Source: Thermothelomyces thermophilus ATCC 42464
Lineage: Eukaryota > Ascomycota > Sordariomycetes > Sordariales > Chaetomiaceae
Reading direction: 5' to 3'
DNA length: 64,000 nucleotides
Assembly: GCF_000226095.1 (NCBI RefSeq)
Contig: NC_016475.1
Coordinates: forward strand, 62,001-126,000
Both the position numbers and the translations under genes were made by a program. Numbering within the stretch: position 1 is the first letter of the stretch; every line of letters begins with the position of its first letter. Below the pieces are notes generated by a model. That model was not told where the DNA came from and made no database searches. It saw nothing but the letters and a program-made list of their open reading frames with translations. Positions 14,241 through 62,369 of this stretch are shown here, in pieces.

Positions 14241-14693
14241 TGTGACAAACCTAACTTAGACTTCTTCTAAAAGGGTTCAGACAAAGGTAGATTAAGCGGG
14301 ACAAGCAGGCAGGTCGTCTAAGGGATTCGGTAAAGCCAAAGGGTTTATAACAACACTAGAGTTGTCTCTTATAGTAGTTAACGATGCTTAGTATAAGTAC
14401 TATAATTATAAGTTACTATTACTAGTAAACTCCTAGAGTCTACTATAACAAGTGACTATTTATATATATATATACTTCTGTCGATTGCTTATAGTCCCCT
14501 TCTATCCTATCCTTAGATTGCCTTTGGTAGTTAGCTATCCTCTACTATCTTTCCCTTTTTAGCAATTGTTTGCCTATAGTAGCTTACGCTCTCTAGTGAT
14601 CCTATGTTAGCCTTGCTTTATGCCCTTCTTGATTAGTAACTTATTTAGCCTGCTATACCCTACTAGGTCGTAGTATATAGTTAGCTTGTAATA
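14241..14693 (-). repeat. Gypsy-B 3' LTR (left)
   Basis: 453 bp, TG..CA ends allowing for transitions. The half shared with all other Gypsy copies here (R-U5: TCACTCGTT... to the ...GTCACA end) is at the left; the U3 half, carrying the words CGACCTAGTAGGG and CAATCGACAG on the minus strand, is specific to type B. Confidence 0.9.
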
Positions 14694-14834
14694 CGATGCC
14701 CCCTCTTTAGAGCTTTTGACTTAAAAGCTTCTTATAACTTGTTTTAAGTACTACTAATACCCCCTTTTTCTAGTAGGTAACGTCTTTCTTCTGCTAACTT
14801 CCTTTTGCTATAGCTAATTATATTCTTAGGAATC

Positions 14835-15490
14835 GTTATAATCTTAAACGCGAACGATATATTATTATAATTAAGATTAAGCAAGAAGGTTATAAGGTTA
14901 CTATACCTTATAAGCGTTATTAGAATATAAAGCTATAAAAGTATTATATAATAATAGAAGGTTTAAATAAGTATTAAAACTATATTTATATAGGTAAGAA
15001 GTATAGTAGTCTAAATATTATAAATGCTTATAGGTTCCTTATTATTTTCCTTTATAGTCTTAAGTTACTAACTATCTTAGTCTTTTCGAATTTATTAGAG
15101 CAAGAGAAGGTTTCAAGGGAGATTACTAAGACCAAGGCGTTACTTGCTTAGACACTAAGCTATTTAAGTTAATTATATCGTTTATAACAATCTTTATATG
15201 ATCGTAGTACCGAAGTTTTTTGTCGTAGCGTAGCTCGTCTAGAGGAGGAGGAAGAGCTAGATACTCCTCTGCCGATATCAGAGACGTAGACCCTCACGGG
15301 TCAGGCTTAGGCATTAGGTGCTTTTGACGTGCTTAATTAGGAGTCGATCAGGTTAGATCCTAGTCTTAATTCTAGCAGGTTCCCCTCTTTTTCTATTAGG
15401 GAATAGGCTTTAGAGCTAGTTTTTATAGCTAGTTAGGATTCTACTAGTAAAACTACTTTAGTTTCTTAGGGCAATTTAAATTCTTAATAG
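14835..15490 (+). pseudogene. Gypsy-B antisense accessory ORF (Cys-rich plus coiled coil)
   Basis: Lies between the end of pol and the 3' LTR, on the strand opposite to pol. A single frame shows an N-terminal cluster of Cys-type codons, most now TAT/TAC through G-to-A change (around 14,906-15,015, pattern like CxxC..C..CxxC..C), then a charged helical region ending in a Glu-rich stretch (around 15,240-15,270). The end of the frame overlaps the antisense of the last pol codons. The start is uncertain. Same general plan as the antisense ORFs of Gypsy-A, -C and -D but a different sequence. Confidence 0.55.
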
Positions 15491-15494
15491 GTTC

Positions 15495-16905
15495 TTATAA
15501 GTTATCTTCTAATCTGAAATTAAGCTATTTGACTAGATATTATAGTTCTTTATTAATAATATATAAATCTAGAATTTCTTCGATATCCTATTCTTCTTCT
15601 TTATCCTTTACTTTGATATATATAGTAACCTTAGCATTCTTTAGTACTAGTTTAAGAAGTGAAATATAAAAAATATCTGTCTATAGTTATATAGATAATG
15701 GTAACGATAGTTAGTAGTTAGATATCGAAATTTGTTCTTTAATAATAAAGGGTCTGACCTTCTTAAAGTCTAGCTTCGTACTTAGTCGTTTAGTTTATAA
15801 GTTTCGTACGATTAGGTAGACTTTGTCTCCCCTCTCTAGGCGAGGTCCCTCGAGCCTATATTTATTATAGTAGTTCTTTATTCTGGTCTTGATAAACTCG
15901 AGTTCCTTTTTAAGCTTTTTATATAGTATATACATTTGTTCTACTTTGACTGCTGCTCTTAGCATTATAACCTCTAATCCTTGCCTAAGGTCTGCTTTAT
16001 ATCTATAGTTCGCGAAGAACGGTGTAACTTTGGTCGTTTCTATTAGTGTCGTATTATAAGCGAGTTATACTATTAGCAATAGTATGACCTAGTCGTCTTA
16101 CTAGCAGTTAACGTAAGAATAGAGATACTACTTAATAACTTAGTTTAGTTGCTCCATTTATCTGTTAGTCTATAGGTAATATACTATTGATAGCTTGCTA
16201 TTAACGCCTAATCGTTATATTAACGCTTACTAGAACTTTGATACGAACTTGGTGTCTCTATTAGTAATCTATTCTTATAGCTAAGTATATATTAATGTAA
16301 CTTGCCGATAGATTACGTTTACTAACTATTCTGCTATCTAAGACTCCTTGTAAGGAAAGAAGTATACCTATTTAGTTAGGCAATCTACTATAGTGAGAAT
16401 ATTATCATAGATTACTCCTATAGCCGTATCCTTAGATTCTAGTAGCTTTATAATAAAGTCTATTATAACTAAACTCTATAGTTTATTAGCTATTGGCAAT
16501 GGCTAAAGTAGCTTATATAGCTTATATTATACCGTTTTGCTTTGATTACAAATGTCGTAGTTCTGTATAACTTCCTTAACTCGTACTGTTAACTATAGAA
16601 AGTCGTAATATTTCTTGACTTGTACGATAGTCTTCGTAACTCCTTTATATCCTCCGAGTTTCGACTTATAGAGTTTTCAAATCATTTGTAGCTATTGATC
16701 CCTATTGTAGATATATACTTTGCCTTAGTACTAGAGTTTTCTATCTCTTTCTTTTACTCTATTAGGTACTACTAGTCTAGGTACTACTTAATACTATATC
16801 TTGTTAATCCTTTCTTCTCGAAAGATTATATAATATTCTAGGAACGAGTCAAGTAGATTATCTTCTACAGGTATCTACGTTTCGTAATATAGCGTTCTAT
16901 CTATT
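15495..16905 (-). pseudogene. Gypsy-B pol relic: integrase, GPY/F and chromodomain-like end
   Basis: Third and last part of the Gypsy-B pol on the minus strand: it starts at the solo LTR and carries the integrase catalytic region, the C-terminal GPF module and the chromodomain-like tail (about 15,495-15,650). It aligns by eye with 40,265-41,700 of Gypsy-C. In-frame TAG/TAA replace Gln and Trp codons throughout. Confidence 0.8.
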
Positions 16906-16910
16906 CGTTC

Positions 16911-17332
16911 TATCACGATTTGGCTGTATAAGGCGACCCGGCAAGGCACATAGGACTAATCAGGAACCACAAGACCTAAGGACCAATCAGGAAGTGATCG
17001 CAGTGATCGCACTTCGATCAAGACGAGCACTTAGGTAACGATCGCAGGATCGTAGCAGCGACCGCACGATCAAGACTCAAGGAGGAAGGACAGGGAATTG
17101 TATATAGTCACTCGTTCCACCAGACTCTGGCGAACTCTGGGAGTTTACCAGTGGTAACAATCACAATCATAGTACTTATACTAAGTATTGCTAATTACTA
17201 TAAGAGATAACTCTAAGTGTTGTTGTAAACCCTTTGGCTTTACTGAATCCCTTAGACGACCTGTCTGCCTGCCCTGCTTAATCTACCTTTGTCTGAACCC
17301 TTTTAGAAGAAGTCTGAGTTAGGTTTGTTATA
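16911..17332 (+). repeat. Solo LTR of Gypsy type C, inserted in Gypsy-B
   Basis: 422 bp, same length and sequence type as the Gypsy-C LTRs, in plus orientation. Flanked by perfect TSD CGTTC (16906-16910 and 17333-17337). The uninterrupted target is visible in Gypsy-C near 41,693, which has a single CGTTC. No internal sequence is present, so this is the usual product of LTR-LTR recombination after a full insertion. Confidence 0.9.
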
Positions 17333-17337
17333 CGTTC

Positions 17338-19239
17338 CTTAAATAATAGTAGTGTTGTTTCTGTTTATCCTTTTGTATGATCTATTTGTTGGCTTAAGAT
17401 GTCTGTTTGTACGTTCTCTTTGCCCTTCTTATAGCGGATCTTGAAGTTAAATTCTATAAGGAATTCTACCTATCGTATTTATTATCTATTAAGCTCCTTC
17501 GTCATTATAAAGTATTGTAAATTCTTATAGTCTATATATACTTATATTAGTTTAATTATATTGCTAAGGTATAGTCGCTATTCCTTAAAAGCTTTAACAA
17601 TTGTAAGTAGTTCCTTATTATAGATTGGATAATTAAAATATAGTCTATTAAGCTTCTTTAAAAAAAAGGCTATAGGATGTAGCTTTCCTTGTTTGTCTCG
17701 TTATCCTAATTATCCTCTAATAGTATAGTCTAAAGCGTCCATTTCCACCTTAAATAGCTTCTTAGGATTTAGTAATACTAGTACTAGATCTTTGGTAATA
17801 GCGTTACAGATCTATATAAATGCTTACTCGTACTGTTCTTCTTATTAAAATTTAGCGTTCTTCCTGGTAAGTTCGTACAAAGGTTATATAATCGCTCCGA
17901 AACTTCTAATGAACATCTAGTAGAAGTTTATAAATCCGATAAAGCTTTGTACTTCTATAACTAACGTCAGTCGTAGCTAATTCTTGATAGCTTTAACCTT
18001 TAAAGGTTCTATCCAAATTTGTCCTAGGGATATCTTGTATCCTAAAAATACCGTCTTCCTAACGTGGAATTCGCTCTTTTCTTTATTAACTAATAGTTTA
18101 TATACGTATAGTACGTCTAGCATTGCTTTTATATATTTCTAGTGTTTATCTATTGTCTTAGAGAAGATAAGTATATCGTCAAGATAATATACCGTAAATT
18201 TGTTAAGAAAGGGTTAGATAGCTTGATTAATTAGGGCTTAGAACATTGCTAACGCGTTTGTAAGTCCAAATAGCATAATAAGGTACTTGTAGTAGCTATA
18301 GGGTATCCTAAAGGCCGTTTTCTACTCGTTGCCTTCTTTGATCTGTATATAGTTATAGGCCGATAGCAAGTCAAGACACGTAAAATATTAGGCTCCTACT
18401 AACTAATCTTAGAGCCGTTAGATTAGCGGTAATAGGTATCGGTTTTTTATAGTCTATTCGTTAAGTTACCAATAGTCGACATATAACTATAGCTTTCTAT
18501 CTTTCTTAGGTATAAATAGGATTAGGTAGCCTACTAGCAATATCAATAGGTAAATATATCTTCTTCGAAGGTTCTCCTCTAAATATCGCTTAAGTTCTTC
18601 GTTCTAAGTCTAGCTTATATAATAGATCTTAAAGAACTTTAGTCGTGCTCCTTCCTTAAGCTTAATCTCGTAATCCTATAAGCTATGTTCTAGTAGTCCT
18701 TCTAGATATTTCGGTTCAAATGCTAGGTGTCCTTTATATTCCTTTAGTACTTCCCTAGTCTTATCTCGTCTCTTAGTTTTCTAATAATATACAAACTTAG
18801 TTCTATCTATAGCGATACTAGCGATTTCTCCTATCTTAACCTATTACTCTAATTATAGTGCTCCGTATTCGTTAACGGAGAGAATAGCTATTAGCGGTTT
18901 AGCTCGTTCCTCCTATCGTAACGTTGGTGTCGTTATACCGCTTCTTCCAAAGTCTATAGTGGTCTGCCTGCCACTATCTATCTCTTGCGGTAGATCTATA
19001 GGACATGCCTTTCCCTAAGCATCGTCTGCTTGTGATCCTTGCACGCTCCCTATCTCGCTAGTCAAATATAACTCTATTTAGGGTTATAGGTAGCTATTAT
19101 TTTTCTAGCTAATGTCTAGGTTATAATTTTTATACTATAGTAACCTTAATATTATGTCTTCGTCGTTGCCTATATCTATAATGCTAAATATGATTGCTAT
19201 AATCTTCCTTACTATAATAATGTCAATCGGTTTGATCTC
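17338..19239 (-). pseudogene. Gypsy-B pol relic: reverse transcriptase and RNase H
   Basis: Middle part of Gypsy-B pol. The RT active-site box YLDD is still readable at 18,175-18,186 (minus strand). RNase H follows toward 17,400. Interrupted to the right by Gypsy-A1 (target CCTAC) and to the left by the solo LTR. Confidence 0.8.
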
Positions 19240-19244
19240 CCTAC

Positions 19245-19690
19245 TGTTATAGATAAGCATATAGACGGCCTAGTAGGCTATAGCTAGGACGTAGGACATT
19301 CTAATAGCTAATTACTTAATAGACTAATTAGAAGATTATTACCGCTAAGACTAAGGTCTTTACTAGTGATAATAACATATCACCGTCGATAATACGGAAT
19401 TATAGAGTAAAAGGAAAAATAATACTAATAATAACTATTAAAGAGGGACAGATAATTATATATATATAGCTAGCTAGTCACTCGTTAAGTAGACTCTAAG
19501 AGTTTACTAGTAGTAACAATCATAATTATAGTACTTATACTAAGCATTGCTAATTACTATAAGAGATGATTCTAGTATTATTATAAACCCTTTAGCTTTA
19601 CCAAATCTCTTAGACGACCTGCCTACTTGTCCCGCTTAATCTACCTTTATCTAAACCCTTTTAGAAGAAGTCTAAGTTAGGTTCGTTATA
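19245..19690 (+). repeat. Gypsy-A1 5' LTR
   Basis: 446 bp. Type-A U3 begins TGTTATAGATAAGCATATAG; a TATATATATAG run just before TCACTCGTT is a plausible TATA box, and the part from TCACTCGTT onward is common to all Gypsy types in the window. Confidence 0.92.
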
Positions 19691-19699
19691 TATTATTAC

Positions 19700-21975
19700 C
19701 ACTCCCTTTGTTCTATTATAGTTTAGAACGGAGGTAACTTTGACCTCGACATCGATATAGCTACTAACATTATAGCCAAATAGCTACTTACCTAGCTTAG
19801 TTAACTCTATTAGCGAATCTAGGAGTTAGACTAGAGAGATAAGGCTACTTAAGCTCGAATCAAGGAACTCGAGAACGGCGAAAAGCACTTGTAGAAATTA
19901 GTTAATGAGGCCTACGCTAAAATTAAGGCACTTAAGAGCGCTAAAGCGAGCTATATTAAGATCGAACTACCTAGTAAATATAGAGGAATTAAGGAGGACC
20001 TTATAGGATTCCTAATAAACCTCTGATCTTACTTCTAGCTTAATAATGACAAGTTTCTAGACGACAAAGCCAAAGTCCTCTATATAGCTACAAGACTAGA
20101 GGGTAAGGTACTTAGATAGTTTAAGCCTATGTAGAATGACTATCTTACTAAGGAAGACGAAGACGACCGAGATATATTTATATAAGTAGTCTTTTAATCT
20201 TATGACTATTTTAAAGAAGAGCTTTAGAAGGTTTTTAGCGACAAAGATAGGAAGATTTATATATAAGAAAGACTTGCTAATCTCTAATAGACTAAGTTAG
20301 TAGCCTCCTATGTTATATAGTTTAGATAAGACATGCTCAAGTCTTAGCTTAATAATAAAGTATTAAATATAACTATTCTATAACGGCTTAAAGGAAAAGG
20401 TTAAAGATAAGCTATATAAGTATAATTAGCCTAAGACTCTAGATAAATATATTATATAGGCTATTAAAATTAATGATTGACTCTATATATAAGAGTAATA
20501 AAAATAAGGTCAAATAAATAAAACTATAGTTAAGGCTAACGATAAGAAAAAGCAAGCGTACATTAGTACTTTATATAGAATATACCCTAGAGCTATAGAT
20601 ATAGATATAGTATAGAAGCAGGATTAGAAAAAGACGACTAAAGACAAGTCTAATGTTACCTAGTATAACTATAGAAAGAAAGGGCACTATAAGCGAGAAT
20701 ATCGAAGCCCGAAGAAAGAGTAGAAGATAGTCCCTAGAAAGGAAATTATAGCTATCGACAAAACTACTAAGGACGTTATCAAAGTAGTAGCCACGAGCTA
20801 CGAAGACAGGGATAGTGACACGGACAGTCTCGGACACGATAGTAATAGTAAAGACAAACAAGCACTATACTCCGAACTGGTCACTATGGACCTAGAGATA
20901 GGTCTTGCCAAATAGGATATAGTAGAAGAGTATATACTGCCAATTTCGATTCTCCTAGCCTTAAGGTAGTAGGGTTTTATAGTTATATAGAGGTAGGATA
21001 GATTATAGATAACTAATATTTAAGGAATCGAAAGACCTAGACCTAATGTTCTATTCCTCTAGGAACGAATTAAATAGTACTATAATAAAGTTTTCTAACT
21101 TAATATAGAACTATATAAATAGAATAGATACTTGATTCGACTTGCCTAGTAGAGCGATAAGATAAGGGATAAAACAAAAGAACTCTAATATATTATAGAA
21201 ATCATTAAAGGAGGATAGCCTATAATATATAATAGGCCTAATAGCTATACTAAGTACCTTAATGACTAGTAACTTAGTAACGACGTATAGAACCTAGAAT
21301 ACTAGTTTATATATACGAACCGTAGAAAAGACGAGTATATATAAGGAAGCTACTAGAAGAAATACTCTTACTATAGTATTAAAGTACCTATAGTCTATAT
21401 ATAATAGGAAGAATTTAGGAAAGACTGCTAATACCTCTTAGGCAACGCTATACGACTATATCCTTAATATAAGGCATATATATAAGTGCCCTAGTTCTAG
21501 TATATAGCATATAGATGCCGATACTACTTCTGTAACAAATTTGAAAATAATTACTAGCCGACCTGATAAGGAAATGAGGACAGAAGCTTACGCCCTGTAA
21601 AATAGGTCTACGATATAGGAAATAGAGCGGCCGAATTGCTTTAAAAGATCGAAGCCTATGATCTAGAGGGTATTATAATAGTTCTAAGACGAGCCTGGCC
21701 TAGGTACTGCGGAATAGGACGAGATATATAGGACTCGTACTAGAGTAACGATTACCTCTATTATACGGACGAAAAGAAATCGCGAATTCGGGAGCTTTAG
21801 ATAAAGCTATAGTATATACAACAAGAAGCAGAACAGACTTAATAGTAGAAAGCTATAAGCACTTAATGGCTTATAGAAATAAGTACGATTGACGAAGCCG
21901 CTATTAGCCGAATAACTAAAGAGGTTAGTACTAACCTAGGAAACGGGTTAGGGCCCGGAAACCATTAACGCCCAT
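19700..21975 (+). pseudogene. Gypsy-A1 gag relic
   Basis: Frame with an N-terminal helical/coiled-coil part, a capsid-like retrotransposon gag domain (about 19,970-20,500; pattern LPSKYRG..DL.GFL..L.SYF..N) and a CCHC zinc knuckle near 20,660-20,705 whose Cys codons are mostly mutated to Tyr. A long tail follows up to the gag/pol border. Broken by many TAG/TAA codons. Confidence 0.8.
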
Positions 21976-21999
21976 GTAGTAGCGAGTAGTAGCGTAGTA

Positions 22000-24900
22000 T
22001 AGGAGGAACTAGCGTAAGAGACCACTATATCGAGACCTCCCGGCAGAAACATAGGAAATCGCTATAATCTTTAGACGATGGCGGTAAGACAAGTGACTAT
22101 AGATAATAGTATAATAGAAACAGCATGAAATGCTTATACTAGTAGATAGTAGAGCAGAGATAAACCTGATTTCGCCGACGCTTATAAATTAGCTATAGAT
22201 ACCTTAGAGAATGAAGTAGAAGTATAGTATAGTTAAAGGGCCATTTCTAATATAATAGGTATATAGGGAGACCGAACTAATTAATATTACCATAGTAAGA
22301 AAGACTATAGTAGTCGTATTTAGTATTGTAAATATGGGTAATAATAAAGATATAATATTAGGGTTACTATAATCTAAAGACTATAACCTAGATATTAGCT
22401 AGAAGAATAGTAGCTACCTATAACCTTAAATAGAGTTATATTTGACTAGTAAGATAGGGAGTACACAAGGATCGTAAGCAGACGATGCTTAGGGGAAGGT
22501 ATATCTTACAAATCCATTATAAGAGATAGATAGTAGTAGGCAGACTATTATAGACTTTAGAAGAAGCAATATAACGACACTAATATTATAATAGGAAGAA
22601 CGAGCTAAACCGCTGATAGCTGTTCTCTCCGTTGACAAATATAGAGCACTATGATTAGAGTAGTAGGTTAAGATAGAAGAAATCGCTAGTATCGCTATAG
22701 ATAGAACTAAGTTTATATACTATTAGAAAACCGAGAGATAAGACAAGACTAGGGAAGTACCGAAGGAATATAAAGGACATCTAGCATTCGAACCGAAATA
22801 TTTAGAAGGACTATTAGAATACAGCCTATAGGATTACAAGATCAAGCTTAAGGAAGGAGTATAACTAAAGTCCTTTAAGATCTATTATATAAGCCAGACT
22901 TAGAATAAAGAACTTAAGCAATATTTAGAGGAGAACCTTTAAAGAGGATATATCTGCCTATTGACATCGCTAGCAGGCTACCTAGTCCTATTTATACCTA
23001 AGAAAGATAGAAAGCTATAGTTATATATTAACTATCGGCAACTTAATGAACAGACCGTAAAAAACCGATACCTATTACTACTAATCTTATAGCTCCGAGA
23101 TTAGTTAGCAGGAGCCTAATATTTTATATATCTTGACTTGCCATTAGCCTATAACTATATATAGATTAAAGAAAGCGACGAGTGGAAAACGGCCTTTAGG
23201 ACACCCTATAGCCACTACGAGTACCTCGTCATGCTATTCGGACTTACGAACGCGCTAGCAATGTTCTAAGCCCTAATTGATCAAGCTATCTAACCCTTTC
23301 TCGACAAATTTATAGTATATTATCTTGACGATATATTTATCTTCTCTAAGACGATAGACAAACACCGGAAGTATATAAAAGTAGTACTAGACACGTTATA
23401 TACGTATGAATTATTAGTTAATAAAGAAAAGGACAAATTCTATATTAGAAAAACGGTGTTTTTAGGATATAAAATATCCCTAGGATAAATTTAGATAGAA
23501 CCTTTGAAGGTTAAAGCTATTAAGAATTAGCTATGACCGACGTTAGTTACAGAAGTATAAAGCTTTATCGGATTTGTAAACTTCTATTAAATGTTTATTA
23601 GGAACTTTAGAGCGATTATACGACCTTTATACGAACTTATAAAGAAGAACGCTAAATTCTAATAGAAAGAACAGTATGAGCAAGCATTTATGTAGATTTG
23701 TAACGCTATTACTAAAGATCTAGTACTAGTATTACTAAATCCTAAGAAGCCATTTAAGGTAGAAACAGATGCTTTAGACTACACTATTAGAGGATAATTA
23801 GAATGATAAAATAAATAAGGAAAGCTATATCCTATAGCCTTCTTTTTAAAGAAGCTCGATAGACTACGTCTTAATTATCTAATCTATAATAAGGAACTAC
23901 TTATAATTATCAAAGCTTTTAAGGAATGGCGACTATATCTTAGTAGTACGATTAAACCGGTACAAGTATATATAGACTATAGGAATTTACGATACTTTAT
24001 AACGATAAAGGAGCTTAATAGATAACAAATACGATAGGTAGAATTCCTTGCGGAATTTAACTTTAAGATCTATTATAAGAAGGGCAAAGAGAACGTACAA
24101 GCGGATATCTTAAGCCGACAAACAGATTACACGGAAGGATAAACGGAAACAATACCATTATTATTTAAGGAACGAACAGACAGAACGCTATATTACAAAA
24201 CGTAGATACCTATAGAAGATAATCCACTTAACTTGTTCTTAGAATGTTACACAATCTTTTAAGAAGAAAGGATTAACGAGACATAGTATTAAGCAGCACC
24301 TAGACTAGTAGTACCTAATGGAGTAGAAGAAAGAGATAGGAAACTCTAGTACTAAGGCAAAGCATATATCTATAATAGGGATTAATAGCTACGAATGATT
24401 CGAGAACTCTATAAGTCGAAACTCGGAGGATATAAAGGAGTTACAAAGACTATTACACAAGTTAGGAAACACTACGACTTTCTATAGTTAATAGTATAAG
24501 TTAAGGAAGTTATATAAAACTACGACATTTGTAATTAAAGTAAAACGGTATAATATAAGCCGTATAGGCTACTTTAGCTACTGCTAATAGCTGACAAACT
24601 ATAGAGTTTAGTTACGATAGACTTTATTATAAAGCTACTAGAATCTAAAGACACGGCTATAGGAGTAATCTATAATAGTATTCTTACTATAGTAGATCGC
24701 CTGACTAAATAGGTATACTTCTTTCCCTATAAGGAGTCCTAGATAGCTAAACAGCTAGTAGATATGATCTATCGGCAAGTTACATTAGTATATGCTTGGC
24801 TGTAAGAATAGATCACCGACAGAGATACTAAGTTTATATCGAAGTTCTAGTAAGCGTTAATATAACGATTAGACGTCAATAGTAAGCTATTAATAGCATA

Positions 24901-25680
24901 CTACCTGTAGACTAATAGATAAACAGAGCGACTAAACCAAGTTATTAAGTAGTACCTTTACTCTTACGTTAACTACTAGTAAGACGACTAGGTTATGCTA
25001 TTGCTAATAGTATAACTCGCTTATAATATAACGCTAATAGCAACGACTAAAGTTATACCATTCTTTACAAACTATAGATATAAAGCAGACCTTAGGCAAG
25101 GACTAGAGGTCATAGTACTAAGAGCAGCAGTCAAAGTAGAACAAATATATATACTATATAAAAAGCTTAAAAAGGAACTCGAGTTTATTAAGACTAGAAT
25201 AAAAAACTACTACGAAAAATATAGGCTCGAGGGATCTTGCCGAGAGAGGGGAGACAAAGTCTACCTAATTATACAAAACTTACGAACTAAATGACTAAGT
25301 ATAAAGCTAGACTTTAAGAAGGTCAGACCCTTTATTATTAAAAAACGAATTTCGACATCTAACTACTAACTATCGTTACCATCATCTATATAACTACGGA
25401 CGGATGTTTTTTATATTTCACTTCTTAAACTAGCACCAAAGAACACTAAGGTTATTATATATATCGAAGTAAAGGACAAAGAAGAAGAATAGGATATCAA
25501 AGAAATTCTAGATTTACGTACTATTAATAAGGAACTATAGTATCTAGTTAAATAGCTTAATTTCAGATTAGAAGATAACTTATAAGAACCTATTAAGAAC
25601 CTAAACTGCCCTAAGAAATTAGAATAATTCTACTAGCAGAACCTAGATTAACTAAAGGAAAACCTAGGACAGAACTAAAG
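22000..25680 (+). pseudogene. Gypsy-A1 pol relic (PR-RT-RH-IN-chromodomain)
   Basis: Aspartic protease motif at 22,145-22,156 (Asp-Ser-Arg-Ala, the Gly changed by G-to-A), RT box YLDD at 23,321-23,332, RNase H start (ETDALDY) near 23,763, integrase zinc and catalytic domains about 24,380-25,000, GPF-like module near 25,310-25,340 and a chromodomain-like C-terminus at about 25,465-25,660. A GPY/F module plus terminal chromodomain defines chromoviruses (established knowledge). Stops throughout. Confidence 0.85.
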
Positions 25681-26247
25681 ATAACGCCCTAGTCGATAGC
25701 ATCGATAATATCATTAATCTCTGACGAGGGTATAGTAGGCGCCTCTTACTACTCTTGCCGCTTAACCGCCTTTAACTCGTCTAAGGTCGACAGACTATAC
25801 GCTATTATATCGGCACCTTTCTCTACTAAAACCTCCTTCTGCTAATAAAGACGCCGGAGCTATATAAGCTTTTCGGACAACTCGTACTAGGCTTCTTCTA
25901 GACGGCATTAGGATTTATCTAGCTTAAGTTTGGTATAACGTTTAGCATTCTTGATATAACGCTGCTCCTAGAGAATGTAATCTACTAGAACGAATATTAG
26001 GAATTACACTTAAAAAAAAAAAAAGGAAGACAAGCTTATAGGAAGAAAGCAGGATACTAAAGCCATTGTAAGAATGACGTCGACAAATATAGGTCTTATA
26101 ACGCTTTATATATACGATCATTTTATAGATAAGGCCTTATAACGCGTACTAAGAGCAAGGTATAACGATAAAACCGTTCTTAGTAATATTCTAAGCAAGG
26201 GAAGCATAGTAATATATAGAAAGCAACTTCCGTTTCTCTATCGGCAT
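25610..26247 (-). pseudogene. Gypsy-A1 antisense accessory ORF
   Basis: Minus-strand frame from ATG at 26,247, running against pol and overlapping its 3' end. The N-terminal half has scattered Cys codons (several mutated to Tyr); the C-terminal half is a Lys/Glu/Leu-rich probable coiled coil ending in a stretch with LDELKAVK. A poly-A run on the plus strand (26,011-26,025) cuts the frame. The layout recalls a widespread class of fungal proteins with CxxC clusters followed by a coiled coil (my recollection, not checked). Confidence 0.55.
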
Positions 26248-26373
26248 TTTATCAATATAGCGACTATAATATAGAAATAGAAAGAATATAGTACTTATAA
26301 GTGAAAGGTGTTAGCACTATTTAAAACGGCCTAAGAGGGCTTTTAGGTTAAAAGCCTTAAAGAAGGGGTATTA

Positions 26374-26819
26374 TGTTACAGATAAGCATATGGACAGCCT
26401 AGCAGGCTATAGCTAGGACACGGGACATTCTAATAGCCAATCACTTGACGGATTAATTAGAAGATTATCACCGCCAAGACTAAGGTCTTTACTAGTGATA
26501 ATAATATATTACTATTAATAATACGGAATTACGGAGTAAAAGGAGAAATGGTATTAGTGATAACTATTAAAGAGGGACAGATAATTGTATATATATAGCT
26601 AGCTAGTCACTCGTTAGGTAGACTCTAAGAGTTTACTAGTAGTAATAATTACAATTATAGTACTTATACTAAGCATTACTAATTATTATGAAAGATAACT
26701 CTAGTGTTATTATAAACCTTTTAGCTTTACCAAATCCCTTAGACGACCTGCCTACTTGTCCCGCTCAATCTACCTTTATCTAAACCCTTTTAGAAGAAGT
26801 CTAAGTTAGGTTCGTCACA
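26374..26819 (+). repeat. Gypsy-A1 3' LTR
   Basis: 446 bp, pair of 19245-19690. Preceded by a purine-rich tract (AAAGAAGGGG, then TATTA) that is the polypurine tract; in other copies the five bases before the LTR read CATCG. Confidence 0.92.
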
Positions 26820-26824
26820 CCTAT

Positions 26825-27125
26825 ATACCTATCACATTAGAAATAGCCCTTTGACTATGCTATGCTTCCGCTTCATTCTCTAAGGTATCTATATCTAATT
26901 TACAAGTATTGGCAAAATTAGGTTTATCTCTACTTTATTATCTACTAGTACGAGCATTTCGTACTATTTCTATTATACTATTATCTATAGTCGCTTGTCT
27001 TGCTGCCGTCATCTAAAGATTATAGCGATTTCTTATATTTCCACTAGGAGGTTTCGATATAGTAGTCTCTTATACTAGTTCCTCCTATACTACGCTACTA
27101 CCTGCCGCTATATAGGCGTTAATGG
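26825..27125 (-). pseudogene. Gypsy-B pol relic: protease end
   Basis: First part of Gypsy-B pol on the minus strand, between Gypsy-A1 and the gag/pol border; contains the aspartic-protease region. It continues at 19,239 after removal of Gypsy-A1. Confidence 0.7.
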
Positions 27126-27129
27126 TTTC

Positions 27130-28774: not shown

Positions 28775-28779
28775 AAACT

Positions 28780-29225
28780 TATTACGGATAAGCATATAGA
28801 CGGCCTAGCAGGCTATAGCTAAGACGTAGGATATTCTAATAGCTAATTACTTAACAGACTAATTAGAAGATTATTACCACCAAGACTAAGGTCTTTACTA
28901 GTAATAATAACATATCACTATCGATAATATAGAATTATAGAGTAAAAGGAAAAATAGTACTAGTAATAACTATTAAAGAAGGACAGACAATTATATATAT
29001 ATAGCTAGCTAGTCACTTGTCAGGTAGACTCTAAGAGTTCACTAGTAATAATAATCACAATTATAGTACTTATACTAAGTATTGCTAATTACTATAGGAG
29101 ATAACTCTAATGTTATTATAAACCCTTTAGCTTTACTAAATCCCTTAGACAACCTGCCTACTTGTCCCACTTAATCTACCTTCGTCTAAACCCTTTCAAA
29201 AGAAGTCTAAGTTAGGTTCGTTATA
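28780..29225 (+). repeat. Gypsy-A2 5' LTR
   Basis: 446 bp, type-A U3 with shared R-U5. Confidence 0.92.
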
Positions 29226-29234
29226 CATTAGTAC

Positions 29235-31515: not shown

Positions 31516-31539
31516 GCCTGTATAGCAGCGAGTGGTAGC

Positions 31540-46180: not shown

Positions 46181-46188
46181 TAATAACG

Positions 46189-46610
46189 TGTGACAAACCT
46201 AACTCAGACTTCTTCTAAAAGGGTTTAGATAAAGGTAGATTAAGTAAGGCAGGTAGGTAGGTCGTCTAAGGGATTTAGTAAAGCCAAAGGGTTTATAATA
46301 ACACTTAGAGTTGTCTTTCACAGTAATTAGCAATACTTGGTATAAGTACTATGATTGTGATTGTTATCACTAGTGAACTCCTAGAGTTCGCTAGAGTCTG
46401 GTAGAACGAGTGACTATATACAATTCCCTGTCCTTCCTCCTTGAGTCTTGATCGTGCGGTTGCTGCTATGATCCTGCGATCGTTACCTAAGTGCTCGTCT
46501 TGATCGAAGTGCGATCACTGCGATCACTTCCTGATTAGTCCTTAGGTCTTGTAGTTCCTGATTAGTCCTGTATGCCTTGCCGGGTCGCCTTATATAGCTA
46601 AATCGTGACA
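46189..46610 (-). repeat. Gypsy-C 5' LTR (right)
   Basis: 422 bp, pair of 39083-39504 and same type as the solo LTR at 16911-17332. Confidence 0.92.
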
Positions 46611-54824: not shown

Positions 54825-55250
54825 TGTCACAGAAATATATATGCAGCTGCCGCCTAGGCCACCGACACAAACAGGCCAATCAAGCCGAAGAATGATAGAC
54901 CAATCAGGATAGGATCACACTTAGCAAGAAACGATCCTAGCAGAGGATCACTAGCTCACGACGTAAGCCAGGTAAGCTAGTACGGAGGATCACCACGACC
55001 ACTAGTAATCCTAGGATTATATATATATATAGATAGTCACTCGTTATAGTAGACTCTAGGAGTTTACTAGTAGTAACAATTACAATTATAGTACTTATAC
55101 TAAGCATTGCCGACTACTGTAAAAGACAACTCTAGTGTTGTTATAAACCCTTTAGCTTTACCAAATCCCTTAGACGACCTGCCTACTTGTCCTGCTTTAC
55201 CTACCTCTGTCTAGACCCTTTTAGAAGAAGTCTGAGTTAGGTTTGTTACA
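54825..55250 (+). repeat. Gypsy-D 5' LTR
   Basis: 426 bp. Type-D U3 begins TGTCACAGAAATATATATGC and includes GATCACTAGCTCACGACG; a TATATATATATAGATAG run before TCACTCGTT is the likely TATA box. Confidence 0.92.
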
Positions 55251-55259
55251 CGTTATTAC

Positions 55260-57530
55260 CACTCCCTTTGTTCTATTATAGTTTAGAACGGAGGTGACTT
55301 CGACCTTAACACTGACATGGCTACCGACGTTATAGCCAAATAACTGCTTGCCTAGCTTAGATAACTCTAGTAGCAGATCTAGGAGTTAGACCAGAGAGAT
55401 AAGGCTGCTTAAGCTCGAATTAAGGAACTCGAGAACGGCAAAAAGTACTTATAGAAATTAATTAACAAGGCCTATACCAAAATCGAGACGCTTAAGAACA
55501 TCAAAGCGAGCTATATTAAGATTAAACTACCTAGTAAATACGGAGGAACTAAGGAGGATCTTGTAGGATTCCTAACTAACCTCTAATCTTACTTCTAGCT
55601 TAATAATGACAAGTTTCTGGACAAAAAAGCCAAAGTCCTTTATATAGCTATAAGACTAGAGGGCAAGGCACTTAGATAGTTCGAGCCTATATGGAACGAC
55701 TATCTTACTAAGGAAGACGAAGACGACCGAGACGTATTTATATAGGTAGTCTTCCGATCTTACGACCGCTTTAAAGAAGAGCTTTAGAAGGTTTTTAGCA
55801 ATAAAGATAAGAAAATCTATACGTAAGAAAGACTTGCCAATCTCCGATAGATTAAGTTAGTAGCCTCCTACGTTATATAGTTTAGATAGGATATATTTAA
55901 GTCCTAACTTAATGATAAGGTATTAATATAATTGTTCTATAACGGCCTAAAGGAAAAGGTTAAAGACAAGCTATATAAGTATGATCGGCTTAAGACTCTA
56001 GATAAATACATCACACAGGCTATTAGAATTGATAATCGGCTCTATATACAAAAGTAGCAGAAATGAGGTCAAACGAATAGAACCATAGTCAAGGCTAACG
56101 ACAAGAAAAAGCGAACGTACGTCAGTACTTCGTACGGGACGTACCCTAGAGCTATAGATATAGACGTAGCGTAGAAGCAGGACTAGAAGAAGACGACCAA
56201 AGACAAGTCTAATGTTACCTGCTATAACTACAGAAAGAAAGGGCACTATAAGCGAGAATGTCGAAGCCTGAAGAAAGAGTGGAAGCTAGTCCCTGGAAAA
56301 GAAATTATAGATATTGACGAAACCATTAAGAACGTTACCGAAATAGCAGCTATAAGCTATAAAGACGAGGATAGTGATATAGATAGTTTTAGATATGATG
56401 GTAATGACAGACAAGTACTATACTCCGAACTAGTCACTGTAAACCTAGAGATAGGTCTCGCTAAATAGGATATAGTAGGAGAGTATATACTACTAATTTC
56501 GATTCTCCTAGCCTTAGAGCAATAGGGTTTTATAGTTATATAGAGGCAGGATAGATTATAGACGACCGACACCTAAGGAATCGAAAGACCTAGACCTAAT
56601 GCTCTATTCCTATAGGAACAAATCGAAGGATACTATAATAAAGTTTTCTGGCTTAATACAGAACTACGCGAATAGGATAAACATTTGACTTAACTTACCT
56701 AGTAAAGCAATAAGATAAGGGACAAGATAAGGAAACTCCGACGTATCGTAGAAACCATCAAAGGAGAACAGCTTATAATATATAATAGACCCGATAGCTA
56801 CGCCAAGTACCTTGATAATCAGTAACTTAGTAACGATGTATAGAACCTAGAATACCATTTTATATACGCAAACCGCGGAAAAGACAAGCATACGTAGGAA
56901 AGCTACTAGAAGAAACACTCCTACCTTAGCATTAGAGTACCTATAGCCTATATATAGTAGGAAAGATTTAGGAGAGAATTCTAATATCTCCTAGGCAACG
57001 CCATACGACTATACCCTCGACACGAGGTATATACGCAAGTGCCCTAGTTCTAGTATGTAGCACACGAATACCGATATCACTTCTACGACAAATTCGAAAA
57101 CAATCACTAGCTAACCTGACAAGGAAATGAGGACAGGAGCTTACGCCCTGTAGAGTAGGTCTACAATATAGGAAACAGAGCGGCCGAATTGCTCTAGAAG
57201 ATTAAAGACCGGAGTCTAGAAGGCATCACGATAGTTCTAAAACGGGCCTGGCCTAGGTACTACGGAATAGGACGAGACATATAGGACTTATACTAGAGTA
57301 ACGATTACCTCTACTATGCGGATGAAAAGAAGTTGCGAATTTGGGAGCTTTAGATAAAGCTATAGCATGTACGATAGAAAGTAGAACGGACCTAATGGTA
57401 GGAAGCTATAAGTACCTAATGGCTTATAGAAATAAGTATAATTAACAAAGCTGCTATTAGCTAAACAACTGAAGAGGTTAGCACTGACCTGGGAAACAGG
57501 TCAAGGCCCTTCGAGGGGCCCGAAAACCAT
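55260..57530 (+). pseudogene. Gypsy-D gag relic
   Basis: Leader helix region, capsid-like domain (about 55,530-56,060), zinc knuckle at about 56,218-56,262 with two of the three Cys codons retained, and a long tail to the hairpin-forming CCCTTCGAGGGGCCC (about 57,508-57,523). Confidence 0.8.
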
Positions 57531-57549
57531 TAACAACTATATAGCGACG

Positions 57550-60500
57550 AGTGGTAGCGTAGTATAAGAGGAACTGGTGTAAAAGACTACTATATTGAGA
57601 CCTCCCGGCAGAAATATAGGAAATCGCCGCAATCTTTAGATAACGACAGCACGATAAGCGACTATAGATAATAGCATAATAAAAATAGCATAAAATGCTT
57701 ATACTAGTGGATAGTAGAGTAGAGATAAACCTAATTTCGCTAATGCTTGTAAATTAGCTATAGATACCCTAGAGAATGAAGCGGAAGTATAGCATAGTCA
57801 AAGGACTATTTCCAATATAATAGGTATATAGGGAGACTAAACCGATCGATATTACTATAGCAGGGAAGACTATAGTAGTTATATTTAGTATTATAGACAT
57901 AGGCGACGACAAAGATATAATACTAGGGTTACTATAATATGAAGATTACGACTTAAATATTAGCTAGAAGAATAGTAGCTACCTATAACCCTAAACAGAG
58001 TTATATTTAACTAGCAAGATAGGGAGTACGCAAGGATCGTAAGAGGACGATGCTCGAGGAAAGGCATATCCTATAGATCTACTATAAGAGATAGGCAATA
58101 GTAGACAGACTATTACGGACTCTAGAAGAAGCGGCAAAACGATACCAACGCTATAACAGGAGGAACGAGCTAAACCGTCGATAGCTATTCTCTCCGTTAA
58201 TAAGTATAGAGCACTGTAATTAGAGTAGTAGGTCGAGATAGGAGAAATCGCTAGTATCGCTATAGATAGAACTAAGTTCGTATACTATCAGAAAACCGAG
58301 AGACAAGACAAGACTAGGGAAGTACCGAAGGAATACAAAGGACACCTAGCATTCGAGCTAAAATATCTAGAAGGGCTACTAGAACACGGCCTATAGGATC
58401 ACGAGATCAAACTTAAGGAAGGAGCATAACTAAAGTTCTTTAAGATTTACTATATAAGCTAAACGTAGAACGAAGAGCTTAAGCGATATTTAAAGGAGAA
58501 CCTCTGAAGAGGATATATCTACCCGTTAACATTACTAGTAGGCTACCTAATCCTGTTTATACCTAAGAAAGATAGAAAGCTATAGTTATATGTTAACTAT
58601 TAGCAACTTAATAAATAGACTATGAAAAACCAATACCTGTTACTATTAATCTTACAGCTCTAAGATTAGTTAGCAGGAGCCTAATATTTTATACATCTTG
58701 ACTTACTATTAGCCTATAACTATATACAGATTAAAAAAGGCGACAAGTGGAAAACGGCCTTTAGGATACCCTATAGCTACTACGAGTACCTTGTCATGCC
58801 ATTTGGACTTATAAACGCGCCAGCAACGTTCTAAGCCCTAATTGATCAAGCTATCTAACCCTTTCTCGACAAATTTACAGTATATTATCTTAACAATATA
58901 CTCATCTTCTCTAAAACGATAGACAAATACTAGAAGCATGTAAGAGTAATACTAGACGTGCTATATATATATAAGCTATTAGTTAACAAGGAAAAGAGCG
59001 AATTCTATGTTAGGAAAACGGTATTTTTAGGGTACAAAATATCCCTAGGACAAATTCGGATAGAACTTTTAAAGGTTAAAGCTATTAAGGATTAGCCACG
59101 ACTAACAACAATTATAGAAGTATAAAGCTTTATCAGATTTACAAACTTCTACTAAATGTTTATCAGGAACTTTAGAGCAATCGTACGACCTTTGTACAAA
59201 CTTACCAAGAAGAATACTAAATTCTAATAGGAAGAACAATATAAGCAAGCATTTATATAAATCCGTAACGCCATTACCAAAGATCTAGTACTAGTACTAC
59301 CAGACCCTAAGAAGCCATTTAAGGTAGAAACAGACGCTTTAGACTACGCTATTAGAGGACAATTGGGATAACAAGACAAACAAGGGAAGCTATATCCTAT
59401 AGCCTTCTTTTCAAAGAAGCTCGACGGATTACGTCTTAATTATCCGATTTATAATAAGGAACTACTTACGATTGTTAAAGCTTTCAAGGAATAGCGACTA
59501 TACCTTAGCAGCATGATTAAACTAGTACAAGTATATATAGATCATAAGAACCTATAATACTTTATAATGACAAAGGAGCTTAATAGATAATAAATATAAT
59601 AGGTAGAATTCCTTATAGAATTTAACTTCGAGATTTGCTATAAGAAGGGTAAAGAGAATATACAAGCAAATGCCTTAAGCTAACAAATAGATCATACGAA
59701 AGGACAAACAGAAATAATACTACTATTGTTTAAGGAACAAGCAGACAGAACACTATATCACAAAACGTAGATACCCGTAAAATATAATCTACTTAACTCG
59801 TTCCTAGAGTATTACGTAATCTTTCGGGAAGAAAGGATTAACAAGATATAGTATCAAACGGCACCCGGACTAGCGGTACCTAATGGAGTCGAAGAAAGAG
59901 ATAGGAAACTCTAGTACCAAGGCAAAGCATATATCTATGACAAAGATCAATAGCTACAAATGATTTAAGAACTCTACGAATCGAAACTTAGAGGATATAA
60001 AGGAGTTACGAAAACTATCGTATAAGTCAAGAAATACTATAACTTTCTATAGTTAACGGTACAAGTTAAGGAAGTCGTACGAAGCTACGACATCTATAAC
60101 CGAAGTAAAACGGCACGACATAAGCCGTATAGGCTACTTTAGCCACTATTAATACCTGATAAACTATAGAGTTCGGTTACGATAGACTTCATTACGAAGC
60201 TACTAGAATCTAAAGACACGGCCATAGGGGTAATCTACAATAGTATTCTTACTATAGTAGACCGCCTAACTAAATAGGTATACTTCTTTCCCTATAAGGA
60301 GTCCTAGACAGCGGAACAGTTAGTAAACGTGATCTATCGGCAAGTCGCATTAGTGTACACTTAGCTACAAGAATAGATTACCGATAGAGACACCAAGTTC
60401 GTATCGAAGTTCTAGCAAGCGTTAATATAATGATTAGGCATTAATAGCAAACTATTAATAGTATATTACCTACAGACTAATAGACAAACAGAACAACTAA

Positions 60501-61220
60501 ACCAAGTTATCAAGTAATACCTTTATTCTTATATTAACTACTAGCAAGATAACTAGGTTATACTATTGCTAATAGTATAACTTGCTTACAATATAATGCT
60601 AATAGAAATGACTAAAGTCATACCGTTCTTTACAAACTACAGATACAAAGCAGACCTTAAGCAAGGGCCAAAGGTCACGGTGCCGAGAGTAGCAGTCAAA
60701 GTAGAACAAATGTACATACTATACGAGAAGCTCAAAAAGGAACTTGAGTTTATTAGAACTAGAATAAAGAACTACTATGACAAACACAGGCTCGAGGGAC
60801 CTTGCCTAGAGAGGGGAGACAAAGTCTACCTGGTCGTACGAAACTTACAAACCAAACAACCAAGTATAAAGCTAGACTTTAAGAAGGTCGGACCCTTCGT
60901 TATCAAAGAACGAATTTCGACATCTAACTATTAACTATCGTTACTATTATCTATACGACTACAGATAGATGTTTTTTATATTTCACTTCTCGAACTAGTA
61001 CCAAAAAACGCTAAGGTTACTATATATATCAAAGCAAAGGATAAAGAGGAAGAATAGGACATTAAAGAAATTCTAGATTTATACATTATTAATAGGGAAC
61101 TATAATACCTAGTTAAGTAGCTCGATTTTAGACTAGAAGATAACTTATAGGAACTAGTCAAGAATCTAAACTGCCCTAAGAAACTAGAACAGTTCTACCG
61201 CCAGAACCTAGATCGACCGT
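57550..61220 (+). pseudogene. Gypsy-D pol relic
   Basis: Protease near 57,710, RT box changed to YLNN (58,886-58,897, both Asp codons G-to-A), RNase H near 59,330, integrase about 59,960-60,700, an open frame (60,596-60,934) with ERGDKVYL and the VGPF module, and a chromodomain-like end at 61,019-61,215. Confidence 0.85.
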
Positions 61221-61817
61221 AGGCACTAGCTCGGACAAAACGGCCAAGTTAGCCTCCGACAAATCTAGGCCTAAAGAGGACTAGTCAAACAGGACGTTAG
61301 TACCCTAGGACTATACGTTACTAATGACACGTGCCTTAGAATCCTGTACCCTCTGTTCTTCTGCCTCTATTTCCTCTAGAGACTATATGCCTTAACGAAA
61401 TAGCTTAGAACCCTGCTCCTTTAAGAAACGTTTCTAGCGATAAAGATAAGCTAATTGACTAACAGCCATCTAAAGTTGAGTTTGAAGAACGAAAAGGGCC
61501 TCTTTAGCATTAGCCTCTTCTTATTCTATATGTTTTTATTTAGATATAATCTTTATTACTATAAAAGATTAGCTATAAACATCAAGGCAATAACTAGGCT
61601 ATAAATAAGCAGATGCTACGTCGGAACTATTATAAAAACGACCCCAATATATACACTCGCTATAGCGAGAAGAGCCTAATACTATATAATAAGCCAAGTT
61701 CCGCTTAAAACACTACGAACATAGTATAACGTCTATGCCAGAAGAGTCAATAAAAGAAGCAAGTATAGCACGTTATTAGGATTTCAAAGATTGGCATTTA
61801 GAGATACGATCTGCCAT
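61170..61817 (-). pseudogene. Gypsy-D antisense accessory ORF
   Basis: Minus-strand frame from ATG at 61,817. Cys cluster in the first third (CS*C, then a SxxC motif after mutation), followed by a Gln/Leu-rich coiled-coil region with KRFLKEQGSKLF and a SLEEIEAEEQ stretch. Ends against pol. Same architecture as the other antisense ORFs, different sequence. Confidence 0.6.
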
Positions 61818-61943
61818 CTTATTAGCCACTAGTAGTATAGAAAAAGGGAAAAATTACAAGGTATATATAGAAAAGGATATTAGCGCTATTTGAAACGACC
61901 TAAAGAGGGCTTTTAGGTCAAAAGCCTTAGAGGGAAGGCATCA

Positions 61944-62369
61944 TATCATAGAAATATATATACAGCTGCTGCCTAGGCCACCGACACAAACAGGCTAATC
62001 AAGCCAAAGAATGATAGACTAATCAGGATAGGATCACACTTAGCAAGAAACGATCCCAGCAGAGGATCACTAGCTCACGACGTGAGCCAGGTAAGCCAGT
62101 ACGGAGGATCACCACGACCGCTAGTGATCCCAGGATTATATATATATGTAGATAGTCACTCGTTATAGTGGACTCTAGGAGTTTACTAGTGGTAACAATC
62201 ACAATCACAGTACTTATACTAAGCACTGCCGACTACTGTAAGAGATAACTCTAGTGTTGTTGTGAACCCTTTGGCTTTACCGAATCCCTTAGATGACCTG
62301 CCTGCTTGTCCCGCTTTACCTACCTCCGTCTGGACCCTTTTAGAAGAAGTCTGAGTTAGGTTCGTCACA
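61944..62369 (+). repeat. Gypsy-D 3' LTR
   Basis: 426 bp, pair of 54825-55250; first bases TATCATAG through transitions. Preceded by purine-rich AGAGGGAAGG and CATCA. Confidence 0.92.

What the first reader, a model, noticed from the sequence alone, without database searches (positions are those of the whole stretch)
14241..62369. Chromovirus family with a swappable [antisense gene + U3] cassette on a constant gag-pol
Five Gypsy copies share gag, pol and the R-U5 part of the LTR (recognisably the same sequence from TCACTCGTT to the GTCACA end, and through the chromodomain). They fall into four types (A, B, C, D; LTR lengths 446, 453, 422, 426) that lose similarity abruptly just after the last pol codons and regain it at R. 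The unlike block holds an antisense ORF, then a conserved polypurine tract, then U3. Because U3 is copied from the 3' end to both LTRs during reverse transcription, one template switch would replace antisense gene and promoter together. This looks like modular evolution: constant replication engine, exchangeable regulator plus promoter. I know of no description of such a cassette system in fungi, but could not search.
Basis: partly seen in the sequence, partly recalled or inferred. Interest (0 to 1): 0.9.

Follow-up and report, generated by a model that had tools for sequence, protein, structure and literature searches.

The report
Retrotransposon with swappable regulator–promoter cassettes
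A jumping gene of the heat-loving fungus Thermothelomyces uses one shared copying engine with six sharply different end pieces that are likely swapped between copies, each holding a backward-facing gene predicted to make a DNA-binding protein next to the promoter it would control, so such elements may trade control circuits as some bacterial viruses do.

Summary
Confirmed, and stronger than first described. Counting transversions only (blind to RIP), gag-pol of types A, C and D is about 99% alike, while the adjacent 3' block and U3 are unalignable; similarity ends within about 25 bases at the end of pol and returns at R. In Thermothelomyces thermophilus, 42 typed copies fall into six discrete types; 20 of 20 further LTRs fit them. 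About 2 kb of pol carries no type signal (1009 of 2000 label shuffles reach the observed value). All six carry versions of one antisense gene; undamaged copies exist (15 C, 18 A). A, B and C are 30-40% identical to each other but 54-80% to proteins of other genera; one T. thermophilus clade is rejected. The protein is predicted Zn2Cys6-like with a long helix; five of six types have repeated U3 motifs. Linkage is not absolute: one of 42 is a natural mix. Exchange at reverse transcription and control of U3 are inferred. Each half has precedents (crapaud, Tnt1; Boty brtn); I found none for the joint cassette.

The parts
14241..37457 (-). E0, type B element, interrupted by E1, E2 and a solo type-C LTR
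   Evidence: 5/5 TSD TATAG, LTR pair U3 RY identity 189/190; nesting from the repeat maps
14695..15433 (+). E0 3' block: type-B antisense gene (RIP-damaged) plus PPT island
   Evidence: coordinates; clusters with 8 other B copies; frames with stops
14475..14694 (-). E0 U3, type B
16911..17332 (+). solo LTR of type C inside E0
   Evidence: TSD CGTTC/CGTTC; 93% to the E3 LTR
19245..26819 (+). E1, type A element
   Evidence: TSD CCTAC/CCTAT, LTR pair U3 RY 190/190
25646..26372 (-). E1 3' block: type-A antisense gene (RIP-damaged) plus PPT island
26373..26587 (+). E1 3' U3, type A
28780..36371 (+). E2, type A element
   Evidence: TSD AAACT/AAACT, LTR pair U3 RY 190/190
35192..35924 (-). E2 3' block: type-A antisense gene (RIP-damaged) plus PPT island
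35925..36139 (+). E2 3' U3, type A
39083..46610 (-). E3, type C element
   Evidence: TSD CTATA/CTATA, LTR pair U3 RY 185/185
39640..40272 (+). E3 antisense protein frame, type C, 75% identical to the intact C protein, 10 in-frame stops
   Evidence: row C4:101640-102272:+ (window = minus 62000)
39317..39505 (-). E3 3' U3, type C (inner edge approximate)
54825..62369 (+). E4, type D element
   Evidence: TSD CTAGT/CTAGT, LTR pair U3 RY 190/190
61211..61942 (-). E4 3' block: type-D antisense gene (RIP-damaged) plus PPT island
61943..62136 (+). E4 3' U3, type D, with GGATCAC/GTGATCC repeats and a GATCAC-N11-GTGATC dyad
62137..62369 (+). E4 3' R-U5, the part common to all types
   Evidence: probe; similarity returns here

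Best explanation
This is a Ty3/gypsy chromovirus family of Thermothelomyces thermophilus in which one shared gag-pol pool is joined to six sharply different versions of a 3' cassette (antisense gene, PPT island, U3 promoter), likely exchanged by template switching during reverse transcription, and whose antisense protein is predicted to be a Zn2Cys6-like DNA binder that would control its own U3. Shown: the common body, six discrete types, abrupt borders at the end of pol and at R, absence of type signal in about 2 kb of pol, concordant LTR pairs with TSDs, one antisense gene family whose versions are shared across genera, a natural antisense/U3 reassortant. Predicted: a Zn2Cys6-like cysteine domain plus a long helix fit for dimer formation. 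Inferred: minus-strand strong-stop DNA made on one RNA jumps at R to the 3' end of a co-packaged RNA of another type, copies that RNA's U3, PPT and antisense gene, then switches back anywhere in the near-identical gag-pol. The obligatory jump at R sets one border, the start of homology sets the other, and U3 is copied into both LTRs. The antisense gene would be transcribed from the U3 side of the 3' LTR, and its protein would bind repeated sites upstream of the TATA box of its own type (repression or activation undecided).
For: Gag-pol transversions 0-1.6% (3.2% in one window) versus 25-36% in the 3' block, types A, C, D. Six discrete types in 42 copies; 20 of 20 other LTRs match a known U3 at RY 0.98-1.00. 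Pol RY distance within types 0.00631, between 0.00650, 1009 of 2000 shuffles reach the gap (40 copies); 12 of 16 zero-transversion pairs are cross-type. TSDs and LTR concordance 5 of 5. L022 and the D mosaics. Antisense A-B 61/174, A-C 68/171, B-C 56/188 identical residues (none of 200 shuffles reaches any of these scores), versus pol tail A-C 344/350; named relatives of each type in other genera 54-80%; one clade rejected, p-AU 8e-81. 15 C copies and 18 A copies (exon 2) free of stops, identical or nearly so. Third-position excess of transversions in the antisense frame: A-E p 0.0016-0.0046 per copy, A-F p 0.0004-0.0017. Phase-1 intron at the same place in A and B on the antisense strand, matched by several public models. 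Six cysteines invariant or at least 90% kept in 41 sequences. All 11 Foldseek rows for the cysteine domain are Zn2Cys6 DNA-binding domains, weak E. U3 repeats and dyads.
Against: No Pfam family passes its cut-off for the own proteins or ten relatives; Zn_clus is sub-threshold (A exon 12.5 bits against 21). The PDB profile search found no zinc-cluster chain, mostly short coiled-coil-like matches. B shows no significant U3 repeat or dyad excess, and neither does the reassortant L022 for repeats. A and E have the most alike antisense genes but different U3 motifs. The A-D codon-position test is not significant (p 0.06-0.23). Three T. thermophilus gene models (P0104, P0114, P0116) do not use the proposed splice junction. 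U3 alone gives five clusters at RY 0.90, because D and F join. Antisense-U3 linkage is imperfect (L022). Only one copy each of undamaged A and C, and one lightly damaged B, were read at the 3' end. No expression, binding or transposition data.
Confidence: 0.58

Rival explanations
1. The types are old separate element lineages, and gene conversion between chromosomal copies has made their gag-pol alike; conversion stops at the 3' block because homology ends there. Exchange is of gag-pol after integration, not of cassettes during reverse transcription.
For: It also gives abrupt borders, shared pol variants, LTR concordance and TSDs. Crapaud shows 5'/3' LTR mismatch, read there as conversion or ectopic recombination, in 7 of 150 full copies (PMC10787394, section 6).
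Against: R-U5 and the PPT island, short islands between unlike stretches, are also shared; near-homogeneity of about 6 kb over dispersed RIP-mutated copies would need very efficient conversion. Undamaged A and C copies are near-identical sets, as retrotransposition bursts would give.
Confidence: 0.2
2. The cassette exchange is real but the antisense product does not control U3: it could be a packaging, nuclear-import or integration factor, or the antisense RNA itself could act through RNA silencing; the U3 repeats would be bound by host factors.
For: DNA binding was not tested; Zn_clus stays below Pfam's cut-off; type B lacks a significant repeat; antisense RNA roles have been proposed for plant aORFs (PMC7264820, passages).
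Against: Cysteine spacing, predicted fold, long helix, repeated and dyad motifs with type-typical cores and coding constraint fit a protein that binds DNA as a dimer.
Confidence: 0.3
3. No exchange: the 3' block and U3 simply evolve extremely fast in place.
For: The antisense genes of all types are homologous, so they share an ancestor.
Against: Types are shared with other genera at 54-80% identity while differing by 60-70% within the genome; zero-transversion pol pairs of different type; natural reassortants.
Confidence: 0.03
4. Artefact of RIP mutation and alignment.
For: All window copies are RIP-mutated.
Against: The transversion-only comparison and the undamaged A and C and lightly damaged B sequences show the same borders.
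Confidence: 0.01

Closest known systems
crapaud Ty3/gypsy family, Podospora anserina complex (Westerberg et al. 2024, PMC10787394; abstract, sections 3, 6, 8, 12 and passages read)
   Same: RIP-prone genome; many subfamilies (14) that differ in U3 while R-U5 and most of the body are shared; LTR and internal-region histories disagree; recombination at reverse transcription suggested
   Different: Its figure legend names two ORFs and its text has 0 occurrences of 'antisense'; variation is placed mostly in U3. Here the variable unit also includes an antisense gene, and its versions are shared across genera
Boty / BcGypsy1 with antisense gene brtn, Botrytis (Zhao et al. 2011, not read; seen as cited in PMC8365987, PMC7264820 and PMC4227169, passages)
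   Same: Fungal chromodomain Gypsy element with an extra antisense gene between pol and 3' LTR
   Different: No set of exchangeable versions linked to U3 in the passages I saw; whether brtn is homologous was not tested
Tnt1 superfamily, Solanaceae (PMC1838419, abstract and passages read)
   Same: Conserved coding part with sharply different U3 modules ('modular' in the paper's words)
   Different: Plant element (Copia class, recalled); no antisense gene in the passages seen, promoter only
Plant antisense aORFs: Grande gene23, RIRE2, Retand (PMC7264820, passages read)
   Same: Antisense gene between pol and 3' LTR, function unknown, regulatory role suggested
   Different: Not described as interchangeable alleles tied to U3 in the passages seen, which report no clear similarity to other proteins
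Lambdoid phage immunity regions (recalled, no call)
   Same: Works like: repressor gene and its operators exchanged as a block on a common backbone
   Different: Analogy only; no repression shown here and no kinship

Membership tests
Chromovirus (Ty3/gypsy with chromodomain) | RT/RNase H, integrase and a C-terminal chromodomain in one pol | tested here: met
   C pol part (712 aa): RT_RNaseH 134.5 bits, Integrase_H2C2 57.6, Chromo 52.6 (cut-off 25.1); rve 31.9, just under its cut-off 32.6. The RT palm itself was not in the scanned part
Chromovirus (Ty3/gypsy with chromodomain) | Paired LTRs, short target-site duplication, PPT next to the 3' LTR | tested here: met
   5 of 5 elements; purine-rich AAGGAGGGGCATCG just before TGTCAC
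Chromovirus (Ty3/gypsy with chromodomain) | gag domain and primer-binding site | not tested
Zn2Cys6 fungal transcription factor | CX2CX6CX5-12CX2CX6-8C (pattern recalled) | tested here: inconclusive
   A fits strictly; B (8) and C (7) only with a longer first loop. Strict/relaxed fits: 13/77 of 99 C-query hits, 3/3 of 15 A-query hits, 0/4 of 9 B-query hits; 19, 12 and 5 of them have fewer than six Cys in all
Zn2Cys6 fungal transcription factor | Pfam PF00172 over its cut-off | tested here: not met
   A exon 12.5 bits and P0106 16 bits against 21; 3 of 41 members match at E 0.013 or worse. Hence filed as 'Zn2Cys6-like' only
Zn2Cys6 fungal transcription factor | Binuclear zinc-cluster fold | tested here: inconclusive
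Zn2Cys6 fungal transcription factor | Coiled-coil dimer and sequence-specific DNA binding | not testable with these tools
   Long helix 78-121 predicted; binding needs an assay
Antisense aORF between pol and 3' LTR (brtn, gene23 kind) | Opposite strand, between pol and 3' LTR, kept in many copies | tested here: met
   Representative copies of all six types; 71 matches to C and 150 scored matches to A exon 2 in the genome
Antisense aORF between pol and 3' LTR (brtn, gene23 kind) | Sequence homology to brtn | not tested
   brtn sequence was not obtained
U3 subfamilies as in crapaud | Variation confined to U3 | tested here: not met
   About 600-700 bases upstream of the PPT island vary as sharply

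The most novel reading that the evidence does not exclude
Retrotransposon heteroimmunity: each cassette is a self-recognising regulator-operator pair, so elements of different type ignore each other's control while sharing one gag-pol pool, and frequency-dependent selection keeps the alleles alive longer than fungal genera.
Probability: 0.3. Interest if true: 0.92.

Novelty: new variant of a known kind. Interest (0 to 1): 0.74.

Why it matters
It would show that an LTR retrotransposon can evolve as a common replication engine with a set of ancient, exchangeable control alleles, much as phages exchange immunity regions. It gives the unexplained antisense genes of LTR elements a testable role (own-type control of U3), offers a reason for U3 subfamilies such as those of crapaud, and makes direct predictions: own-type binding, a spliced antisense transcript, and recombinant cDNA bounded at R.

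Tried and rejected

Sampling limits: the pol probe had 887 first-look candidates, of which 40 were scored; the 39 outside the window were fetched, with the 5 window copies 44. L021 had no R-U5 in the fetched stretch and L014 a 1390-base block; both were dropped, leaving 42. Of 41 R-U5 hits (1737 candidates, 40 scored) 20 were fetched. The label shuffle used 40 (no C copy, no E0, no undamaged reference). The pol probe came from the type-D copy, so ranking favours pol sequences like it.
Full report
What is there. The window lies at C4:62001-126000 of a 38,744,216-base, 7-contig genome. A protein of this gene family carries the name Thermothelomyces thermophilus ATCC 42464 on a contig of 10,931,058 bases, the length of C1 here, so the host is that thermophilic fungus. 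Between 14.2 and 62.4 kb sit five Gypsy copies: E0 (B), E1 and E2 (A), E3 (C), E4 (D). E0 is split by E1, E2 and a solo type-C LTR. Each copy has target-site duplications (5 of 5 letters in four, 4 of 5 with one C/T change in E1), and the U3s of its two LTRs agree in purine/pyrimidine (RY) code (190/190, 190/190, 185/185, 190/190, 189/190). All carry RIP signatures.

Observation. RIP makes transitions, so I compared transversions. Among E1-E4 (types A, C, D), gag-pol differs between types by 0-1.6% per 250-base window (3.2% in the last pol window of pairs with C); the core of the 3' block differs by 25-36% and the U3 window by 26-28%; the R-U5 window of the 5' LTR is at 0-0.8% and the short last window of the 3' LTR at 0-2.2%. 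In a six-type alignment RY agreement is 0.96-1.00 per 25 columns up to the end of the chromodomain region, 0.63 in the next 25 and 0.02 after that. Inside the block it ranges from 0.00 to 0.81, rises to 0.86-0.97 in the PPT island, and is 0.76-1.00 from about TAGTCACTCGTT over the next 125 columns (dips there are indel columns).

Genome-wide. A pol 3' probe found at least 40 copies (887 first-look candidates, 40 scored). Of 44 copies examined (39 fetched, 5 in the window) 42 gave a clean block: A 15, D 10, B 9, E 4, F 3, C 1; within-type RY identity 0.96-1.00, between types 0.69-0.82, pol 0.983-1.0 for all pairs. Shuffled blocks align at 0.66-0.70 (15 pairs). Twenty of 20 further LTRs fetched with an R-U5 probe match a known U3 at 0.98-1.00. 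In about 2 kb of pol (45 rows) 17 transversion sites are informative; 12 have the rarer state in two or more types, and the five one-type sites lie at the block border except one seen in two D copies. Pol distances within (0.00631) and between types (0.00650) do not differ: 1009 of 2000 label shuffles reach the observed gap (40 copies), and 12 of 16 pairs without any transversion are cross-type.

Modules. The antisense part gives six clusters; U3 alone gives five at RY 0.90, because D and F U3s (0.82-0.90 alike) and L022 join. Antisense part and U3 usually go together, but L022 has an E antisense gene (RY 1.00 to E) with a D-like distal U3, and type D occurs with two PPT/proximal-U3 segments, one like F and one like E. 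So the cassette has at least three segments, and the PPT island, alike in all types (0.77-1.00), can serve as a further crossover point (inferred).

The antisense gene. Undamaged copies exist: an open pol frame of 1287 aa with cassette C (L048) and of 1264 aa with cassette A (L049); the difference of 23 equals the difference between their cassette-coded pol tails as I count them. The C protein (212 aa) is free of stops and identical or nearly so in 15 places among 71 matches; A exon 2 in 18 among 150 scored (604 candidates). A and B have a phase-1 intron of 69 and 51 nt at the same place on the antisense strand; models P0115 (T. thermophilus), P0102 (Chaetomium globosum), P0100 and P0117 (Canariomyces), P0118 (Parathielavia) and P0120 (Corynascus) read through this junction, while three T. 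thermophilus models (P0104, P0114, P0116) do not. An intron on this strand is not removed from genomic RNA, so its upkeep suggests that the antisense strand is transcribed and spliced (inferred). The end of the antisense frame overlaps the conserved pol tail. RY mismatches between A and E and between A and F are most frequent at third codon positions of the antisense frame (for example 31/19/44, p 0.0046; 32/22/53, p 0.0004); A against D is not significant (p 0.06-0.23) (copies of one type are not independent). D, E and F frames, all damaged, were recognised by eye and by local alignment to relatives.

Age. A-B 61/174, A-C 68/171 and B-C 56/188 identical residues, against 344/350 for the A-C pol tail (330/349 for A-B, where the B copy is lightly RIP-mutated). 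The nearest named relatives are in other genera: A 123/154 in Canariomyces and 115/185 in Chaetomium globosum; B 82/128 in Corynascus, 96/154 in Parathielavia, 92/164 in Canariomyces; C 88/112 in a Chaetomium, 119/184 in Colletotrichum, 100/160 in Cordyceps, 103/192 in Pyricularia. The three T. thermophilus proteins as one clade are rejected (p-AU 8e-81; 29 rows: 3 own and 26 of 123 hits). Pol of those other species was not sampled, so the claim that pol sorts by species is untested.

U3 motifs. Repeated heptamers exceed 500 dinucleotide shuffles in C (GATCGCA x5, 0 of 500), D (AGGATCA x5 or GGATCAC x4, 0 of 500), E (GTGATCA x4, 0 of 500), F (p 0.022 in one copy, 0 of 500 in another) and A (GTGATAA x3, p 0.022), not in B (p 0.86) nor in L022 (p 0.94). 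Type-typical cores: GTGATA only in A; GATCGC 6 in C and 3 in B; GATCAC 4-7 in D, E and F and 2 in C; for scale, GATCAC occurs 4 times in 1890 bases of C pol. F has three GATCAC-N10-GTGATC dyads at exactly 34-base steps in all three copies (RIP-tolerant sites; 1-3 of 2000 shuffles reach the simpler equal-step score). Dyad counts exceed mononucleotide shuffles in E, F, C and D (0, 0, 3 and 8 of 300 reach them), less in A (19) and not in B (68). Several word lengths were tried, so marginal values (A) are weak, and D, E, F come from RIP-mutated copies. Inverted half-sites fit a dimeric binder (inferred).

Mechanism. Strong-stop DNA transfer at R is an obligatory step of LTR-element replication (established knowledge). 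If it goes to a co-packaged RNA of another type, U3, PPT and antisense gene of that RNA are copied next, and one later switch in near-identical gag-pol restores the first engine. This gives the observed borders, matching LTR pairs and a pol without type signal. Gene conversion between chromosomal copies remains a rival.

Literature. Crapaud in Podospora (PMC10787394) has 14 U3 subfamilies with a mostly shared body; its text has no occurrence of 'antisense'. Tnt1 (PMC1838419) shows modular U3 evolution. Boty's antisense gene brtn is cited in PMC8365987, PMC7264820 and PMC4227169; the original paper was not seen. In the searches listed under Tried and rejected I found no description of an antisense gene and U3 that vary together.

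Verdict. A real, clean case of modular exchange; the regulator-operator reading is the best guess and untested.

Noticed in passing
26320-26372 (E1) and the same island in other copies: Just upstream of the PPT lies a short perfect hairpin in undamaged copies: GGCTTTCG-GGT-CGAAAGCC in A, GTCTTTCG-AGGA-CGAAAGAC in C, GCTTTCG-GGT-CGAAAGC in lightly damaged B; the A/C difference is a paired change (read; not folded). It may help PPT use, RNA processing or the antisense leader.
   Followed up: partly
13065-13274 and 62857-63066: A 210-base direct repeat, 93% alike, lies on both sides of the retrotransposon cluster and outside all five elements; nature unknown.
   Followed up: no
L048 1947-2585 versus L049 1009-1668 and L051: Type C lacks the intron that A and B share at one position and phase; it may have been lost through a spliced antisense RNA.
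   Followed up: partly
F-type copies L012, L023, L025, last 100 bases before R: Three dyads at exactly 34-base steps (about three helical turns) directly upstream of the TATA tract.
   Followed up: yes
G000: Two cassette types (18 A and 15 C copies) are free of stops and near-identical, so two types were active recently; 55 of the other 56 C matches carry stops.
   Followed up: yes
P0007, P0011, P0034, P0102, P0115 and others: Relatives of the antisense gene are annotated in named fungi as 'hypothetical protein' or, by UniRef in three cases, 'Zn(2)-C6 fungal-type'; they are probably retrotransposon genes (inferred) and may inflate transcription-factor counts.
   Followed up: partly
46611-54824: Eight kilobases between E3 and E4 without tandem repeats; GC 0.47 then 0.31 and TpA/ApT up to 2.66, so possibly older RIP-mutated repeats of another family.
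   Followed up: no
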